From assembly GCF_019711515.1 (NCBI RefSeq), contig NZ_JAIGNO010000001.1, forward strand, positions 310,001 through 374,000: 64,000 nt of DNA. Direction: 5' to 3'. A program made the translations under genes and the position numbers. Origin of the DNA: Qipengyuania qiaonensis. GTDB taxonomy: Bacteria > Pseudomonadota > Alphaproteobacteria > Sphingomonadales > Sphingomonadaceae. Under the pieces are notes generated by a model, which saw only the letters and a program-made list of their open reading frames with translations, made no database searches and was not told where the DNA came from. How positions within the stretch are numbered: position 1 is the first letter of the stretch; each line of letters opens with the position of its first letter. Shown here piece after piece: positions 33,565-62,809 of this stretch.

Positions 33565-33641
33565 GCGCCCGTAGCTCAGTAGGATAGAGCATCAGATTCC
33601 TAATCTGGGGGCCACAGGTTCGAATCCTGTCGGGCGCACCA
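33565..33641 (+). tRNA. tRNA-Arg (anticodon CCT)
   Basis: 77 bases with encoded CCA end. Acceptor stem GCGCCCG/CGGGCGC pairs perfectly; the anticodon stem TCAGA/TCTGG encloses loop TTCCTAA, giving anticodon CCT that reads AGG. The T arm GTTCGAATC is canonical. The region just downstream looks foreign, as is common beside tRNA-Arg genes. Confidence 0.97.
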
Positions 33642-54904: not shown

Positions 54905-56317
54905 ATGGCGCATTCGATACTACTGGTTGAAGACGATAAGAGCATTGCCACGGTCATTACCCAAGCCTTGCGCGAAGACGGGTTCGACGTCACCGCCTGC
55001 GAAAGTCTTGCCCGGCGCGATGCCTTGCTGGCCGGCCACACATTCGATGTCATGCTGACCGACGTCATCCTTTCCGATGGCGATGGGCTGGCATCCATTT
55101 CCACCGTGCGCGAGCATGCGCCGCGGATGCCGATTATCGTCCTCTCCGCGCAGAACACGCTCGATACCGCCGTCCGCGCAAGCGATAGCGACGCCTTCGA
55201 ATATTTCCCCAAGCCTTTCGACCTGGACGAGTTGACGCAAGCGGTTGCGCAGGCCGTTGCCAGCCGGCCGGTGGCGGAAGGATCGGATGACGGAGAGGAA
55301 AGCGCACTGCCGCTGATCGGGCGTAGTCCGGCCATGCAAGGCGTTTTCCGCATGATTACGCGCGTAATGCGCAATGATCTGACCGTGCTGATCACCGGGG
55401 AGAGCGGCACCGGGAAGGAACTCGTCGCCGAAGCGATCTACCAGCTCGGCGCGAGGAAGACCGGGCCCTTTATTGCCGTGAATATGGCCGCGATCCCGCA
55501 CGATCTCCTGGAAAGCGAGCTGTTCGGACATGAGCGTGGAGCCTTTACCGGTGCGGTCAGCCAGCAGATCGGCAAGTTCGAACAGGCCAATGGCGGTACG
55601 CTGTTCCTCGACGAGATCGGCGATATGCCTGCCGAAGCGCAGACACGGCTGCTACGCGCATTGCAATCGGGGCGGATACGCAGGGTGGGGGGACGGCAGG
55701 AAATCGGCGTTGACGTACGCATCGTCGCAGCCACAAATCGTGATCTGGTGCCGATGATCGCCGATGGCCGCTTTCGCGAAGATCTTTACTACCGCCTCAA
55801 TGTGGTTCCGATCCATCTGCCGCCCCTGCGGGAGCGGCAAGAAGACATCGGCGCGCTGGTCCGTCATTTTCTCGGCCAGGCTGCAGGCGAGGGATTGCCG
55901 GCTCGCCAAGCGAGTTCGGACGCTATCGACGTTCTCAAAGCTCGCGAGTGGCGAGGCAATGTCCGCGAATTGCGCAATGCGGTGTTCCGCCTCGCATTGA
56001 TGGCCCGCGACGACGTGATCGACGAGTCATCGGTCAACGACGTCCTGCCCGCAACGCGTATTGCCGAACACGCGGACGCCAAGCACGGCTTCGACGCGGC
56101 GCTCGAGCTCTGGATCGAAACGATGCAGCCCGGCGAAGGTACATTGTACCATGCAGCCCTTGCGGCATTCGAGAAACCGTTGTTCGAACACGCGCTCGAA
56201 CGGACCGAGGGCAACCAGTTGCGCGCTGCGAGAATGTTGGGAATTAACCGCAACACCCTTCGCAAGCGGCTAGCGGAACTCGATATTGCGCCGGAAAGTT
56301 TCAACCGGAGACGCTAG
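54905..56317 (+). CDS. ntrC: Nitrogen regulation response regulator NtrC
   Basis: 470 residues: receiver domain (1-120, phospho-Asp in VMLTDVIL), AAA+ sigma-54 activator domain (140-375) with Walker A GESGTGKE and a complete GAFTGA loop (encoded at 55538-55555), and a Fis-type HTH (GNQLRAARMLGINRNTLRKRL). It activates sigma-54 promoters for nitrogen assimilation. A stop-adjacent hairpin follows. Confidence 0.96.
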   Translation: MAHSILLVEDDKSIATVITQALREDGFDVTACESLARRDALLAGHTFDVMLTDVILSDGDGLASISTVREHAPRMPIIVLSAQNTLDTAVRASDSDAFEYFPKPFDLDELTQAVAQAVASRPVAEGSDDGEESALPLIGRSPAMQGVFRMITRVMRNDLTVLITGESGTGKELVAEAIYQLGARKTGPFIAVNMAAIPHDLLESELFGHERGAFTGAVSQQIGKFEQANGGTLFLDEIGDMPAEAQTRLLRALQSGRIRRVGGRQEIGVDVRIVAATNRDLVPMIADGRFREDLYYRLNVVPIHLPPLRERQEDIGALVRHFLGQAAGEGLPARQASSDAIDVLKAREWRGNVRELRNAVFRLALMARDDVIDESSVNDVLPATRIAEHADAKHGFDAALELWIETMQPGEGTLYHAALAAFEKPLFEHALERTEGNQLRAARMLGINRNTLRKRLAELDIAPESFNRRR

Positions 56318-56337
56318 CGGCCGGCGTGCCGGCTGCT
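56316..56337 (+). terminator. Hairpin at ntrC stop
   Basis: AGCGGCCGG, loop CGTG, CCGGCTGCT: nine pairs including one G-T, beginning inside the ntrC stop codon. No T tract follows, so it is likely an attenuator or mRNA 3' boundary between ntrBC and ntrYX. Confidence 0.4.
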
Positions 56338-56366
56338 GCGGACCTCAGTTTGTCGAATTTGTACTT

Positions 56367-56394
56367 GCATAACTGCAACAGTGCAGTTGTATGC
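56367..56394 (+). promoter_or_regulatory. Hairpin enclosing the ntrY start codon
   Basis: GCAT-AACTGCA, loop ACAG, TGCAGTT-GT-ATGC. The ntrY ATG (56391) is part of the outer right arm. A folded leader would hide the start, so translation of ntrY may be controlled at initiation. Seen by pairing only; not tested. Confidence 0.45.
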
Positions 56395-58634
56395 CCGCCA
56401 CGATGTTAGCTGGCGTAGAAGGATCAAAGCGACAAACTCCGCGCTGGTGGCGCAGATTCGTCGTCACGTCGCGCCGTCAGAACATATTCGCCTATATCGA
56501 GGTCACTGCGGCTGTCGCCTTTCTGGTAATGGTTGCCAGCACGTGGGCGACTTTTACCAGTGCGCCGCCGAATGGCGATTTGCTGCCATCCCGTCAGGTA
56601 GCGGGCCTGCTTATCGGTACATTGATACCGGCAATGACGTTGCTGGTTCTCGCCGGACGGAGAATGGCCTTGCGGCGCGCAGCGGGCAGTACGGCGCGTC
56701 TGCACGTCCGCTTGGTGTTCTTCTTCTCGATGATCGCCGCCGTGCCGACGCTGCTGGTCGCCGGTTTTGCGGCTTTTCTGTTCCAATCCGGAGTGGATTT
56801 CTGGTTCTCGGATGATTCCCGCGGTTTGATGGAGAACGCGAATCGGCTTGCCGAGAACTATTACGAGGAAAACCAGCTCGATCTCGCCAACGAAACCGTA
56901 TCGATGGCGATGGACATGCGGTCTATTCTCGGCCGTTTGGAAATAACCGATCCGAACTTTGCTGTTCTCTATCAGTACCAAGCAGAGCCTCGGGATGTCG
57001 TCGAAAGTGCCATCCTGCAAGCGATGCCCGATCGTACGATGCGTACTGCGGTCGTATATGGTCTCAACGAAGACAGTGATCCTCGTGCATTTGCCCAGGA
57101 ATCGCTGGCCCAGCTGTCAAACGGAGAGCAGGTTGCGGTGCGAGGCAGCCCGGAGAGGATTGAAGCGGTCGCCCCGATCGACCGAGACACAGGTATTTAT
57201 CTTTATACCGCGCGCAGTTCCGAAGCCGGCACTTTCCGAAGCTGGCAGTCCGCGCGTTCGATCTCGACCGCCTATGACGAGCTCACCAAACGCGCTCGCG
57301 CGCTTCAGCTGCGCTTCAATCTGGCGCTTTTCTTCGTCTCGCTCGCGCTCGTTGGATTGGCCGTCTGGTTTGCGCTTCGCTTTGCCGACCGACAGGTGGA
57401 GCCACTTACCGATCTGGTCGCCGCGGCGCGAAAGGTCGGGGCGGGTAATTTCGCTCTGCGGGTGGAGGGGCGGACGGGGGCCGACGAGATCGGGCTGCTC
57501 AACCGTGCATTCAACAGAATGACGGCACAATTGGAAAAGCAGACCGATGCGCTGTTATCCGCCAATACCGAGCTTGAGGAACGTCGTAGCTTTATCGAAG
57601 CCGTTCTCGAATCGGTCAGCGCCGGAGTGATTTCCGTCGACGGCGATCTCAACGTCCTCCTCATGAATGCGCCAGCCCAGGCGATGCTCGCCAACGAAGC
57701 CGCGATCGGGAATCTGCCCACGACACTCGACGATCTTGCGCCGCAGATCGGCGCGATGGTACGGGCAGGGCTGGATAAGGGAGTGATTTCACACAGCCGC
57801 GATGGCGAACTGCTGACACTCGCGGTCAAAATCGGGCGCGAAAGCGACGGCCACGTCATCACTTTCGAAGATATCACCCGACAGCTGCTCGATCAGCGCC
57901 AGGCCGCATGGTCCGACGTGGCACGTCGCATCGCACATGAGATCAAGAACCCGCTGACTCCGATCCAGCTGGCCACCGAACGCCTCAAGCGGCGCTATCG
58001 CAAACAGATCGAGCAGGATGGCGAGCTCTTCGACGAACTGACCAGCACGATCGTGCGGCAGGTCGGCGATCTGCGAAAGATGGTCGACGAATTCTCGAGC
58101 TTTGCCCGTCTGCCAAAGCCGAGCTTTCGTCCCGAAGACGCCCTCGATCTCGTGCGGCAGTCGTTGTTTCTTCAGGAAGTGGCGCACCCGGATGTCGATT
58201 ATCGTTTCGAGGCCCCGGATAATGGTCCCATCCGGATCCAGTGCGACCGGCACCAGCTTGGTCAGGCGCTGACAAATACGCTTAAAAACGCGTACGAGGC
58301 AATTGAAGTAAAGGCACAATCCTCCGATATCGACTTTCGCGGCCGGATATTCGTGGAGGTGGTCCCCAGCGAAGATGCAATCACCGTTTCCGTGCAGGAT
58401 AACGGGATCGGGCTGCCTCAGGACCGCGTCAATATCCTGGAGCCTTATGTGACCACCCGGGAGAAGGGTACCGGGCTGGGCCTCGCAATCGTGAACAAGA
58501 TCGTCGAGGAGCACGGGGGAGAGATGATGTTTACCTCGGTAGATACCGGGGGCACGCGCGTGACCATGCGGTTCGCGCGCGACCCGCTGGCCATGAGCGG
58601 CGAAACGCAGACAAGCAGGAAAAGTGAAGGGTAG
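56391..58634 (+). CDS. ntrY: Membrane sensor histidine kinase NtrY
   Basis: 747 residues. Two N-terminal TM helices plus a third (about 35-55, 70-90, 105-130), a periplasmic sensor part, a TM helix near 310-330, then HAMP, PAS, H box [16 protein letters not shown] and HATPase (TLKNAYEAIE, DNGIGLP, GTGLGLAIV). Partner of NtrX; in other alphaproteobacteria the pair links nitrogen and redox or oxygen status. ATG at 56403 is an alternative start. Confidence 0.95.
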   Translation: MPATMLAGVEGSKRQTPRWWRRFVVTSRRQNIFAYIEVTAAVAFLVMVASTWATFTSAPPNGDLLPSRQVAGLLIGTLIPAMTLLVLAGRRMALRRAAGSTARLHVRLVFFFSMIAAVPTLLVAGFAAFLFQSGVDFWFSDDSRGLMENANRLAENYYEENQLDLANETVSMAMDMRSILGRLEITDPNFAVLYQYQAEPRDVVESAILQAMPDRTMRTAVVYGLNEDSDPRAFAQESLAQLSNGEQVAVRGSPERIEAVAPIDRDTGIYLYTARSSEAGTFRSWQSARSISTAYDELTKRARALQLRFNLALFFVSLALVGLAVWFALRFADRQVEPLTDLVAAARKVGAGNFALRVEGRTGADEIGLLNRAFNRMTAQLEKQTDALLSANTELEERRSFIEAVLESVSAGVISVDGDLNVLLMNAPAQAMLANEAAIGNLPTTLDDLAPQIGAMVRAGLDKGVISHSRDGELLTLAVKIGRESDGHVITFEDITRQLLDQRQAAWSDVARRIAHEIKNPLTPIQLATERLKRRYRKQIEQDGELFDELTSTIVRQVGDLRKMVDEFSSFARLPKPSFRPEDALDLVRQSLFLQEVAHPDVDYRFEAPDNGPIRIQCDRHQLGQALTNTLKNAYEAIEVKAQSSDIDFRGRIFVEVVPSEDAITVSVQDNGIGLPQDRVNILEPYVTTREKGTGLGLAIVNKIVEEHGGEMMFTSVDTGGTRVTMRFARDPLAMSGETQTSRKSEG

Positions 58635-58640
58635 GGCCGT

Positions 58641-60026
58641 ATGGCGTTAGATATTCTCATCGTCGACGACGAGCGCGACATTCGTGAGCTCGTGGCCGGT
58701 GTCTTGAGCGACGAAGGCTATGAATGTCGGACGGCGGCGGACAGTACGTCTGCACTGGAAGCGGTCGATGCCAAGCGGCCGAGCCTCGTCCTGCTCGATG
58801 TTTGGCTGCATGGAAGCCAGCTGGACGGGCTGGAAGTTCTGGACGCGATCAAGGTGCGTGAGCCGGATCTGCCCGTCATCATTTTCTCCGGTCACGGTAA
58901 CATCGATACAGCGGTCAGTGCCGTCAGTCGCGGAGCAGTAGATTTCATCGAGAAGCCGTTCGAGGCGGAGCGCCTGCTTCATCTCGTCGAGCGCGCGACC
59001 GAAACCGAACGACTGCGGCGGGAGAATACCCGACTACGCGAAAATCAGACGCAGGGTGACGAATTCACTGGAAACTCCGCAGTTATCAACACTGTCCGGG
59101 CCACACTGAAGCGCGTCGCCAATACCGGCAGCCGGGTTCTTGTGACCGGACCGGCCGGTGCGGGCAAAGAGGTCGCAGCGCGGCTCTTGCATAGTTGGAG
59201 CCCCCGCGCCGACAAGGCCTTCGTGATCGTCAATTCCGCCCGCATCACGCCGGAGAGATTTGAGGAAGAGCTTTTCGGCGAAGAGGCCGATGGCAAGTTG
59301 GTGCGTCCGGGCCTTCTTGAAACGGCGGATGGCGGAACACTTTACCTCGACGAGGTGGCCGATATGCCGCTTTCCACCCAGGCCCGGATCCTGCGAGTGC
59401 TGACCGAACAGAGCTTCGTGCGAGTTGGCGGCACGCGGCAGATCGGTGTTGATGTGCGCGTCGTTTCGTCGACTTCCCGCGACCTGGCGAAAGAGATGGA
59501 CGAGAAGCGCTTTCGCGAGGATCTTTTCTATCGACTGAATGTGGTTCCCGTCGAAGTGCCATCATTGTCCGAACGTCGCGACGATATTCCCTCGCTGGCC
59601 GACAGTTTTTTTGCCCGCTACGCGACCGAGCAGGGTATCAGGCCTCCGGAGATCAGCGAGGAAGCCATGGCTGCATTGCAAGCCTATGATTGGCCCGGCA
59701 ATGTGCGCCAGCTCCGCAATGTCGTCGAGCGCACTATCATTCTGACGCCGCGCGAAAATCTCGAACAGATCGAGGCGGACATGCTGCCGGAAGAAGTGCT
59801 CGGCGGGAAGGTGAGCGGGAATGGCGGGGTAGGGGCCATGATGGGTGCCCCGCTCCGCGAAGCGCGGGAAAACTTCGAACGCGAATATCTGACGGTACAG
59901 ATCCGCAGATTTTCGGGCAATATTTCGAAGACGGCAAACTTCATTGGAATGGAGCGCTCGGCGCTGCATCGAAAGCTCAAACTGCTTGGCATGGTAGAAA
60001 AAAAGGGGCCGGACCGGAAGAACTGA
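58641..60026 (+). CDS. ntrX: Response regulator NtrX
   Basis: 461 residues: receiver (1-120, phospho-Asp53 in LLDVWLHG), AAA+ domain (Walker A GPAGAGKE at about 170-177) and Fis-type HTH (GNISKTANFIGMERSALHRKL). The GAFTGA sigma-54 contact loop is missing: after ELFGEE the sequence reads ADGKLVRPGLLE. It therefore probably acts without sigma-54. It is six bases after ntrY. Confidence 0.95.
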   Translation: MALDILIVDDERDIRELVAGVLSDEGYECRTAADSTSALEAVDAKRPSLVLLDVWLHGSQLDGLEVLDAIKVREPDLPVIIFSGHGNIDTAVSAVSRGAVDFIEKPFEAERLLHLVERATETERLRRENTRLRENQTQGDEFTGNSAVINTVRATLKRVANTGSRVLVTGPAGAGKEVAARLLHSWSPRADKAFVIVNSARITPERFEEELFGEEADGKLVRPGLLETADGGTLYLDEVADMPLSTQARILRVLTEQSFVRVGGTRQIGVDVRVVSSTSRDLAKEMDEKRFREDLFYRLNVVPVEVPSLSERRDDIPSLADSFFARYATEQGIRPPEISEEAMAALQAYDWPGNVRQLRNVVERTIILTPRENLEQIEADMLPEEVLGGKVSGNGGVGAMMGAPLREARENFEREYLTVQIRRFSGNISKTANFIGMERSALHRKLKLLGMVEKKGPDRKN

Positions 60027-60192
60027 TGGGTGTCGCGAAAGTTGCGTATTCGCTTACCAAACCAGGATTGCATTGCGTTGTTTCGGATATTCAACCACTA
60101 TAGCTAGGCTCGCAGAAGCCTGCGGACAAACTCGGGCGTGGTGGGCGCCCAGATTGCACTCCTGAAAGGGTGCCAAGAAACGGGAAAAACAC

Positions 60193-60732
60193 ATGTCCGG
60201 CGACCGAACACTCTCTGCACGACCACGCCCCAAACCGCCTGAAACCGGTCAGGGCAATCGTCCACAGAATCTCCAGGATGCCTTTCTGAATCTGCTGCGC
60301 AAGAACAAGGCGCCGGTGACGATGTTTCTTGTCAAGGGCGTGAAGCTGCAGGGTATTGTCACCTGGTTCGACAACTTTTCGATCCTGCTTCGTCGCGACG
60401 GTCAGTCGCAGCTGGTTTACAAGCACGCGATCAGCACCATCATGCCAGCTCAGCCGGTGGACACTGCACAATTCGCCAGTCAGGGTTCCGGCGCCAAGCA
60501 GCGGCTGTTGCAGGACGTCTTTCTCAGCCGCGTAAGCCAGGCTGAGGCGCAGGTTACGATGTTCCTGGTCAACGGTGTGATGTTGCAGGGCAGAATTGCT
60601 GCATACGACCTGTTTTGTATGCTGCTCGAGCGCGACGGTTACGTCCAACTGGCCTACAAGCATGCCGTCTCGACGATCCAGCCTGCGACCCCGGTCGATC
60701 TGACCGAGGAATGGGAAGAGGACGACAACTGA
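60193..60732 (+). CDS. hfq: RNA chaperone Hfq with two tandem Sm domains
   Basis: 179 residues, over twice a normal core Hfq. Domain 1 (about 26-86) is canonical: LQD at 27-29, basic rim RKNK at 36-39, Lys51 and YKH at 76-78. Domain 2 (about 104-165) keeps LQD (106-108), Phe141 and YKH (155-157), but the rim reads SQAE (115-118) and the distal lysine is Met130. A 17-residue linker joins them and the tail is acidic (EEWEEDD). Hfq pairs small RNAs with mRNAs. It lies between ntrX and hflX. Confidence 0.95.
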
Positions 60733-62048
60733 GTTTCGACGATGATTTGATGGGCGAAGTATCGCGCGGTGCGCGGGCACTCGTGGTGTGTCCGGACATC
60801 CGCGGCATGGCCTACGACCTCGACGCACAGTCCCGGCTTGCCGAAGCCGAGGGCCTGGCGCTGGCCATCGGTATCGTGATTGCCGAACGTTTCGTACTGC
60901 CCGTGCGCGAGGTGCGGCCGAACCTGCTCTTTGGGGCGGGGCAGGTCGAGAATATCGGCATCGCGTGTGAACAGAACGAAGCCGAACTGGTCGTGGTGGA
61001 CGGGGCGCTTACTCCGATCCAGCAACGCAACCTTGAAGAAAAGCTGGGGCGGAAGGTCATCGATCGTACCGGCCTGATCCTGGAGATATTCGGCGAACGT
61101 GCCGCGACGGCGGAAGGTCGACTTCAGGTCGAACTTGCCCATCTGGATTACCAGCAGAGCCGCCTTGTGCGGAGTTGGACCCACCTCGAGCGCCAGCGTG
61201 GTGGCTTCGGCTTTCTCGGGGGACCCGGCGAAACCCAGATCGAAGCCGACCGGAGAATGATCCGCCAACGGATGGGGCGCCTGCGCAAGGAACTCGAGCA
61301 GGTCCGGAAAACCCGCGGCTTGCATCGCGAGCGGCGGGAGCGCGCGCCATGGCCGGTCGTCGCGCTGGTCGGCTATACGAATGCCGGCAAGTCCACCCTG
61401 TTCAACCGCCTTACCGGGGCGGGGGTGATGGCCGAAGATCTGTTGTTCGCCACACTCGACCCGACCATGCGTGCGATTGCCCTGCCGGGCGTCGAAAAGG
61501 CGATCCTGTCGGACACGGTCGGGTTCATTTCCGATCTGCCGACCCAGCTAGTCGCGGCATTCCGGGCCACTTTGGAGGAAGTCACTTCCGCCGACGTCAT
61601 CTGCCACGTCCGGGACATTTCCAATCCTTCGACCGCGGCTCAGAAAGCGCAGGTGCTCGCCATACTTCGCGACCTCGACATCATCACGGGCGAGGGCGAC
61701 ACATCGTCGATCCCCATCGTCGAAGTCTGGAACAAGTGGGACCAGCTTGCCGACGAGGATGCGCAGGAATTGGCCATGCAGGTCGAGGCGAACGAGGATG
61801 TTATCGCAGCTTCGGCGCTTGACGGCGAAGGCGTGGATGTGCTGCTCGAACGCCTGGGCGAGATGCTCACTCGCAACGCAACCTTGCGCACATTCGAAGT
61901 TCCGGCAAGCGACGGTCGGCGGATCGCGTGGTTGCACGCGCATGGCGAGGTGATCGAAGAAATCGAAGCGGCCAACGGTAGCTCCAACCGTCTGATCACC
62001 GTGCGGCTAAATCCGAAGGAACTGGGCCAGTACGAAGCGCTAGCCTAG
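60711..62048 (+). CDS. hflX: GTPase HflX
   Basis: About 445 residues from the ATG at 60711, which overlaps the hfq end by 22 bases; ATG 60750 is the alternative and neither has a clear ribosome site. HflX binds ribosomes and rescues stalled ones. The N-terminal HflX domain has [11 protein letters not shown] and [34 protein letters not shown] precedes the GTPase domain with Walker [10 protein letters not shown] and switch region [10 protein letters not shown]. Convergent with mazG, sharing four bases. Confidence 0.93.
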
Positions 62049-62809
62049 CCGATCTCGTGTTTGGCGCGCTGCCAGTATTGCTCCTGAATATCGAGATCGA
62101 GCGCGGGAAACTCCTTCCCGTCGACCTGAGATAGTTCTTCCATCTTTCTGAAACGACGCTCGAATTTTGCGTTCGCTGCGCGTAGCGCCTGCTCCGGATC
62201 CACGCCAAAGCGCTTCACGATATTGACCGCAACGAAGAGCACGTCGCCAGCCTCGATCAGGCGTTCCGCGTCGGTCGCGGCGCTTGCGAGTTCCTCGATC
62301 TCTTCGTGCAGCTTGTCGATGGGCCCGTTCACATCGGGCCACTCGAAACCCACGCGCGCGGCGCGCTTCTGCAGTTTGTGAGAGCGCATTAGCGCCGGGA
62401 GCGCCTCGGCCACGCCATCCATGGCACTTGCGGCACCCGACGCTTCGCGCTCTGCCGCCTTGAGATCTTCCCAGCGACCGCTGTCCATCGTGCCGCCTTG
62501 ATCGCCGAAGATGTGCGGATGGCGCGCCTCCATCTTGTCGCAGATGGTCCGGGCGACATCTTCATAGGAAAAATCGCCGGCTTCCTCGGCCATTCGGGCG
62601 TGGAACACGACTTGCAGCAACAAATCACCGAGCTCGCCGCGCAGATCGTTCATATCGCCGCGCTCGATGGCGTCCGCGACCTCGTAGGCTTCCTCGATCG
62701 TATATGGCGCAATCGTCGTGAAATTCTGTGCGGTGTCCCATTCGCATCCGGTTTCCGGATCGCGCAGCCTGGCCATGATTTCGAGAAGTCGGTGGGTTTG
62801 ATCGGACAT
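62045..62809 (-). CDS. mazG: Nucleoside triphosphate pyrophosphohydrolase MazG
   Basis: 254 residues with two MazG all-alpha domains, as in E. coli. The N-terminal domain contains CEWDTAQNFTTIAPYTIEE and the EExxE-type metal motif in IEEAYEV with ELGDLLLQ; the second repeats EEIEEL and DVLFVAVNIVKRF. It hydrolyses NTPs and lowers (p)ppGpp in E. coli. A structured leader lies immediately before the ATG, which has no visible ribosome site. Confidence 0.95.
   Translation of the reverse strand: MSDQTHRLLEIMARLRDPETGCEWDTAQNFTTIAPYTIEEAYEVADAIERGDMNDLRGELGDLLLQVVFHARMAEEAGDFSYEDVARTICDKMEARHPHIFGDQGGTMDSGRWEDLKAAEREASGAASAMDGVAEALPALMRSHKLQKRAARVGFEWPDVNGPIDKLHEEIEELASAATDAERLIEAGDVLFVAVNIVKRFGVDPEQALRAANAKFERRFRKMEELSQVDGKEFPALDLDIQEQYWQRAKHEIG

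What the first reader, a model, noticed from the sequence alone, without database searches (positions are those of the whole stretch)
60193..60732. Tandem Hfq with an asymmetric second Sm domain
One 179-residue chain holds two Hfq domains. Both keep the proximal-pocket residues (LQD, Phe, YKH), but in domain 2 the basic rim RKNK becomes SQAE and the conserved lysine of KLQG becomes Met. A ring of three such chains would be a pseudo-hexamer with alternating basic and neutral/acidic rim patches, which should change how small RNAs and mRNAs are matched. I recall that double Hfq proteins have been noted in some sphingomonads, so the fusion may not be new, but I know of no functional study of the asymmetry.
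Basis: partly seen in the sequence, partly recalled or inferred. Interest (0 to 1): 0.75.

Follow-up and report, generated by a model that had tools for sequence, protein, structure and literature searches.

The report
Tandem Hfq with two unlike halves
This bacterium's only copy of the RNA-matchmaker protein Hfq is a double-length type already known from sphingomonad bacteria, and its two halves differ from each other in a fixed way that suggests a three-chain ring with alternating RNA-binding faces.

Summary
ORF 60193-60732 (+, 179 aa) carries two Hfq domains, the only Hfq matches in the genome. The tandem form is not new: NCBIfam has a model for it (NF010691), and a 2010 Zymomonas paper described it and asked whether three chains would make the ring (PMC2877685, passages).

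Added here: in 171 distinct tandem proteins the two halves differ by a fixed swap on the distal, mRNA-binding face. Domain 1 has Lys instead of Asn at position 28 (171/171). Domain 2 never has Lys31 (171/171) and has Met in 167/171. All 51 single-domain Hfqs compared keep Asn28 and Lys31.

Flanking genes place 56 tandem rows in one clade with single-domain relatives basal: one origin in place. AlphaFold2 gives two Sm folds, pTM 0.78.

Best reading: a trimeric pseudo-hexamer with six U pockets but, here, three basic rims. Ring assembly and RNA binding are untested.

The parts
60193..60732 (+). hfq, 179 aa, tandem Hfq (two Sm domains in one chain)
   Evidence: no other Hfq match in the genome
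60193..60270 (+). N-terminal extension, residues 1-26, Pro/Arg-rich, mostly predicted disordered
   Evidence: pLDDT under 50 over most of residues 1-22
60271..60447 (+). domain 1 core (L27-P85; Hfq positions 7-64): basic rim RKNK, Lys28, Lys31, named U-pocket residues kept
60334..60336 (+). codon of K48 (Hfq position 28): Asn in 51/51 single-domain Hfqs, Lys in 171/171 tandem domain 1
60448..60507 (+). linker, residues 86-105 (20 aa); 15-26 aa in relatives, variable sequence
60508..60684 (+). domain 2 core (L106-P164; Hfq positions 7-64): Q8, D9, F42, YKH kept; rim SQAE, Met31, Leu41, Glu47, Gln63
60535..60546 (+). SQAE (residues 115-118), the domain 2 rim; private to this protein in the sample
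   Evidence: 1 of 133
60580..60582 (+). codon of M130 (Hfq position 31): Lys in 51/51 singles, Met in 167/171 tandem domain 2 and Lys in none
60685..60729 (+). acidic C-terminal tail ([15 protein letters not shown], net -7)
   Evidence: net charge -2 or lower in 163 of 171 tandem tails; also in 20 of 20 family singles and 30 of 31 outgroup singles
58641..60026 (+). ntrX-like response regulator, upstream neighbour
   Evidence: upstream on the same strand in 168 of 171 tandem loci and 20 of 20 single-domain family loci
60750..62048 (+). hflX GTPase, downstream neighbour (start taken as ATG 60750)
   Evidence: downstream on the same strand in 165 of 171 tandem loci and 20 of 20 single-domain family loci

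Best explanation
An in-frame tandem duplication of the ordinary alphaproteobacterial hfq, made once within the sphingomonad family at the ntrX-hfq-hflX locus, replaced the homohexamer by three tandem chains whose domains alternate D1-D2 round a pseudo-hexamer (inferred). The main residues of all six proximal U-pockets are kept, so binding of sRNA U-tails should persist (inferred from conserved residues). The lateral rim is kept on D1 and lost to differing degrees on D2, so that in the window protein three basic patches remain. Their number matches the three acidic tails, which by analogy with Caulobacter Hfq would dock on the rim of the neighbouring protomer, always a D1 in an alternating ring (inferred). 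On the distal, A-R-N-binding face the positive charge of six Lys31 is regrouped as Lys28+Lys31 on each D1 and none on each D2, giving a three-fold pattern (residues shown, effect inferred). The product remains the cell's only Hfq, an RNA chaperone with a three-fold division of labour.
For: Two Hfq domains, the genome's only Hfq matches. One origin in place: a tree of flanking NtrX+HflX puts the 56 tandem rows chosen for it in one clade (SH-aLRT 99, quick search), with 19 single-domain relatives outside it; fewest changes 1; synteny shared. Domain tree: D1 one clade (96), D2 one clade (99). Fixed swap: D1 Lys28 171/171, D2 not Lys31 171/171 (Met 167), singles Asn28/Lys31 51/51. Pocket residues kept in D2: Q8 171/171, K56 and H57 170/170 with one row gapped. 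D2 is under purifying selection near the window: median pN/pS 0.032 over 21 pairs, D1 0.070. AF2 pTM 0.78 and 0.85. Acidic tip docking on the adjacent protomer's rim in Caulobacter (PMC6561178, passages).
Against: No tandem Hfq appeared among the 35 PDB sequences matched (longest chain 114 residues), and no multimer could be modelled, so alternation in one ring is not shown; pTM of a monomer does not prove a ring interface. D2's proximal side is not untouched: position 41 is changed in every main-clade D2 (Leu in 129 of 133) and D9 is Glu in 38 of 133. Rim asymmetry is not universal: 5 of 133 D2 rims keep +4. D2 is less constrained than D1 in Novosphingobium and Sphingomonas/Hephaestia. The predicted link between D2 rim charge and linker acidity (rho 0.36) has no support once relatedness is allowed for: 4 supported independent pairs, no signal. 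Z. mobilis Hfq did not bind the two sRNAs tested and is said not yet to be shown to be an sRNA chaperone (PMC7064620, passages).
Confidence: 0.6

Rival explanations
1. Standard hexamer through domain 1 only: six chains form a D1 ring and six D2 domains hang outside or form a second ring stacked on the first.
For: D1 is the better-conserved half (mean pairwise identity 0.878 against 0.749) and the closer to single-domain Hfq (0.825 against 0.639).
Against: D2 keeps most residues of both RNA pockets and a confident Sm fold (pLDDT 95-98 over residues 111-170), and is under purifying selection near the window. pTM 0.78-0.85 suggests a preferred D1-D2 placement rather than a dangling domain. A stacked double ring is not excluded.
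Confidence: 0.16
2. D2 is a partly redundant copy drifting under relaxed constraint, and the asymmetry has no function.
For: D2 rim positions vary by lineage. D2 pN/pS exceeds D1 in Novosphingobium (0.131 against 0.042) and Sphingomonas/Hephaestia (0.150 against 0.046), and both domains are weakly constrained across the degenerate clade (0.388 and 0.477).
Against: Several D2-specific states are fixed or nearly so across the family outside the degenerate clade (Met31, Gln63, loss of Trp38), as is the D1-specific Lys28. Near the window D2 is more constrained than D1. None of the 19 single-domain rows falls inside the tandem clade, so no loss of D2 is seen in that sample.
Confidence: 0.16
3. The chain is cut in the linker and the two domains then assemble as separate subunits.
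For: The linker is less confidently modelled (pLDDT about 80) and varies in sequence and length.
Against: No conserved linker motif was seen by eye in the linkers printed, and no start codon with a clear ribosome site, by eye, to make D2 alone. Cleavage itself could not be tested.
Confidence: 0.06

Closest known systems
Zymomonas mobilis Hfq (ZMO0347) and the NCBIfam family NF010691 (PRK14091.1)
   Same: Two Sm-like domains in one chain within Sphingomonadales; the window protein scores 302.3 bits against a cut-off of 270. PMC2877685 (passages) describes the two domains, finds them in six other Sphingomonadales species and asks whether three chains suffice for the ring.
   Different: The passages read do not describe different RNA-binding residues in the two domains; the fixed Lys28/Met31 swap, the single origin and the rim trend come. 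Z. mobilis itself was not identified among the loci compared here.
Caulobacter crescentus Hfq (6gwk)
   Different: One domain per chain and six identical rims and tips per ring; the window protein would have three of each.
Eukaryotic Lsm hetero-rings such as S. pombe Lsm5/6/7
   Same: Ring of non-identical Sm folds that lacks six-fold symmetry, joined by beta4-beta5 pairing (PMC3355152, passages).
   Different: Separate subunits there; a covalent tandem of two Hfq domains here. Resemblance of principle only; ring assembly is not shown here.

Membership tests
Hfq (Pfam PF17209) | Hfq domain above the curated cut-off | tested here: met
   185 bits against 27, two stretches; each domain alone over cut-off. 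The related Hfq_1 family also passes (38.3 bits, cut-off 27)
Hfq (Pfam PF17209) | Sm fold | tested here: met
Hfq (Pfam PF17209) | Proximal U-pocket residues Q8, F42, Y55-K56-H57 | tested here: met
   Present in both domains of the window protein; position 41 beside them is changed in D2
Hfq (Pfam PF17209) | Hexameric ring | not testable with these tools
   No multimer prediction and no coordinates; a three-chain pseudo-hexamer is inferred
Hfq (Pfam PF17209) | sRNA-mRNA chaperone activity | not testable with these tools
   No experiment; in Z. mobilis still open (PMC7064620 passages)
Tandem Hfq (NCBIfam NF010691) | Match above the equivalog cut-off over both domains | tested here: met
   302.3 bits against 270, residues 13-178
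Tandem Hfq (NCBIfam NF010691) | Occurrence in sphingomonads | tested here: met
   Of 149 family genomes 146 match, 125 tandem and 21 single (singles inspected); named tandem loci are Erythrobacter, Novosphingobium, Sphingomonas, Sphingobium and kin. No tandem seen in other families sampled (one two-match genome, G711, not inspected)
Heteromeric Lsm-type ring | Non-identical Sm subunits in fixed alternating positions | not testable with these tools
   The sequences fit it; assembly unknown

The most novel reading that the evidence does not exclude
Tandem Hfq is an obligate bacterial 'hetero-ring' that reads mRNA with three-fold rather than six-fold symmetry. The Lys28+Lys31 / Asn28+Met31 alternation makes distal A-R-N triplets unequal, so good targets should carry A-R-N contacts in a six-nucleotide phase. 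In lineages such as this one only three rims anneal RNA, each gated by one acidic tail from a neighbouring chain's D2. Most of a bacterial family would then have moved to a specialised chaperone whose parts are divided among fused subunits, as in eukaryotic Lsm rings.
Probability: 0.3. Interest if true: 0.75.

Novelty: new member of a known kind. Interest (0 to 1): 0.52.

Why it matters
Hfq is mostly studied as six identical subunits, so the number and symmetry of rims and faces needed for RNA annealing is hard to vary. Here the ring appears to be fused in pairs, with different residues fixed in the two halves across the tandem-bearing part of a family. If the ring alternates, the protein is a natural experiment on how many rims, acidic tips and distal lysines a working Hfq needs. 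It might also bear on why Zymomonas Hfq did not bind the two sRNAs tested (PMC7064620, passages). The tandem itself has been known since 2010, which limits the surprise.

Tried and rejected
Secondary loss as the origin of the single-domain Hfqs in the same family: not supported by the sample. The 19 in the tree lie outside the tandem clade and all 20 usable ones carry Asn28/Lys31. Only 56 of the tandem proteins were put in that tree, by my choice.

Tandem outside the family: genomes with two Hfq matches outside it were G149, G464 and G711. G149 and G464 have one domain in the Hfq ORF fetched (L165, L220). G711 was not inspected.

Link between D2 rim charge and linker acidity: rho 0.36 over 133 proteins but no signal over independent pairs, so not claimed. 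More acidic tails go with less basic D2 rims (rho 0.54), also without independent support.

A separate start for domain 2: the nearest are ATG at codon 84 and TTG at codon 106 (and GTG at 89); none lies behind a clear ribosome site by eye.

RNA families near hfq: the Rfam scan of the window found only a tRNA. Weak Pfam rows LSM and Mn_catalase fall below cut-off and are not used.

Literature: no paper of the held library has Hfq together with 'two Hfq domains', 'duplicated Hfq', 'Hfq domains' or pseudo-hexamer. Wider searches gave partly capped listings (for example 20 of 68, 30 of 408, 40 of 58), seen as titles and abstract starts only; passages were read in 12 papers. Some of these had nothing of use (PMC8102297, PMC5107571, PMC10725011).

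Rows dropped before counts: L219 (frame broken, two ORFs; left as it is), L154 (single cut short by a stop), L129 (same place as L156). 178 tandem loci collapse to 171 distinct. L145 fell out of the flanking tree because its HflX reading was short.

Full report
What is there. Window 60193-60732 (+) encodes a 179-residue protein with two Hfq domains, between an ntrX-like regulator and hflX. The genome (3.39 Mb, 33 contigs) has no other Hfq match. NCBIfam already holds a model of the double protein, NF010691, which this one passes (302.3 bits, cut-off 270). The nearest named relative found is Erythrobacter sp. AP23 (94% identity), which also groups with the window in the flanking-gene tree. The genome tool gives families as codes; that the window's family is Sphingomonadaceae in the wide sense is inferred from the named relatives.

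Prior knowledge. PMC2877685 (passages) reported in 2010 that Z. mobilis Hfq has two Sm-like domains, that six other Sphingomonadales species share this, and asked whether three such chains would make the hexameric ring. PMC3474761 (passage) mentions two hfq-like genes in Novosphingobium aromaticivorans, citing earlier work not seen here. So neither the fusion nor the trimer idea is new. I met no paper describing different RNA-binding residues in the two domains (searches, several with capped listings; the library lacks most subscription journals).

Distribution and origin. Of 149 genomes sampled from the family, 146 match: 21 have a single domain (all fetched) and 125 are tandem by the span of the match. 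In the order search the genomes of other families that match show one match each, except G149, whose fetched Hfq ORF has one domain. In the class search (337 genomes, 276 with a match) the two-match genomes outside the family were G464, one domain in the ORF fetched, and G711, not inspected. A quick tree of the neighbours NtrX and HflX (87 rows: 56 tandem, 19 family singles, 12 outgroup; NtrX missing in most outgroup rows) puts all 56 tandem rows in one clade (SH-aLRT 99), with the singles outside it as a basal grade. A tree of the domains themselves, with few columns and poorly resolved inside, still separates D1 (96) and D2 (99). The simplest history is one in-place tandem duplication with no loss seen in this sample.

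The asymmetry. From 232 loci, 178 tandem loci gave 171 distinct proteins (133 main clade; 31 and 7 from one divergent genus), compared with 20 family and 31 outgroup singles. Position 28: Lys in 171/171 D1; Asn in 51/51 singles and in 170/171 D2, the other being Lys. Position 31: in D2 Met in 167/171 and Ala, Leu or Ser in the other four; Lys in 51/51 singles; in D1 Lys in 163, Arg in 7, Gln in 1. Outside the 7 most diverged proteins, other D2 states that differ from the singles in 90% or more are at 13, 19, 37, 38, 41, 44, 47, 51 and 63. In the main clade Q8, F42, Y55, K56, H57 and the distal positions 25, 29, 30, 32, 33, 52, 61 are kept in both domains (one D2 row is gapped at the end); D9 is Glu in 38 of 133 D2, and 41 is Leu in 129 of 133. 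In P. aeruginosa Hfq, simulations predict that the backbone of 28 and the side chain of 30 hold the N base, and the backbone N of K31 bonds the A phosphate (PMC8121710, passages). The swap therefore changes charge beside conserved pockets rather than removing them. That Lys31 side-chain mutants weaken poly(A) binding in E. coli is recalled, not looked up.

The rim. Rim residues named for E. coli and Salmonella Hfq are N13, R16, R17, F39 with R19 and K47 (PMC4337610, passages). Net charge over 16-19 and 47 is +4.0 in family singles, +3.81 in outgroup singles, +3.88 in D1 and -0.56 in D2 of the main clade, where it ranges from -3 to +4 and is 0 or below in 101 of 133. The window's D2 has -2, and its motif SQAE occurs in 1 of 133. 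A D2 rim of +1 or more occurs in 20 of 56 tree rows, with 7 changes on the tree.

Mechanism proposed. Shown: two Hfq domains that keep the main pocket residues, fixed D1/D2 residues, an acidic tail in 163 of 171 (the tail is ancestral, present in 50 of 51 singles). Inferred: three chains per ring, alternating. In Caulobacter the acidic tip lies on the adjacent protomer's rim, and in the RydC complex N-terminal residues of a neighbour lie by the rim. In an alternating ring the only free tail (D2's) would meet D1's rim, the rim that stayed basic, while the linker that follows D1 would pass D2's rim, the one that mostly lost its charge. This fits but is not tested, and a comparative test of linker against rim gave no independent support. 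Functional consequences remain open; in Z. mobilis Hfq was not found with two sRNAs and its chaperone role is described as undemonstrated (PMC7064620, passages).

Verdict. Real, correctly read in most details, architecture already known. The added finding is a strictly conserved distal-face charge swap between the two halves, present throughout the tandem clade sampled, which makes the division-of-labour idea directly testable. On re-checking I lowered the main confidence from 0.62 to 0.60, because D2's proximal side is less untouched (positions 9 and 41) than I had first written.

Noticed in passing
L164, L213-L218 (Hfq ORFs; divergent genus g78): Seven relatives with genomes of about 2.1-2.6 Mb have a shortened, highly diverged tandem Hfq (140-143 aa): D1 F42 to Tyr, D2 Y55 to Phe and F39 to His, acidic tail lost in 7 of 7, yet D1 Lys28 kept and D2 without Lys31. 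The two scanned (L164, L215) miss the NF010691 cut-off. pN/pS is high across the clade (0.39-0.48) but low in the close pair L164/L214, against a dead gene.
   Followed up: partly
window 60193-60270: A Pro/Arg-rich N-terminal extension of about 25 residues precedes domain 1 here and in close relatives; Sphingomonas-type tandem proteins seem to start only a few residues before domain 1 (by eye).
   Followed up: no
L174, L224, L229, L230, L104: Five tandem Hfqs keep a fully basic D2 rim (+4) together with a Glu-rich linker; not independent of ancestry.
   Followed up: partly
L219: One genome's tandem hfq is split over two frames (a broken or misassembled copy); left as it is.
   Followed up: no
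window 54905-62809: Gene order of two NtrC-type regulators around an NtrY-like sensor kinase, then hfq, hflX and, on the other strand, a MazG-like gene (names by recall; only the NtrX and HflX places were compared).
   Followed up: no
window 33565-33638: A tRNA gene, the only Rfam match in the window at the gathering threshold.
   Followed up: no
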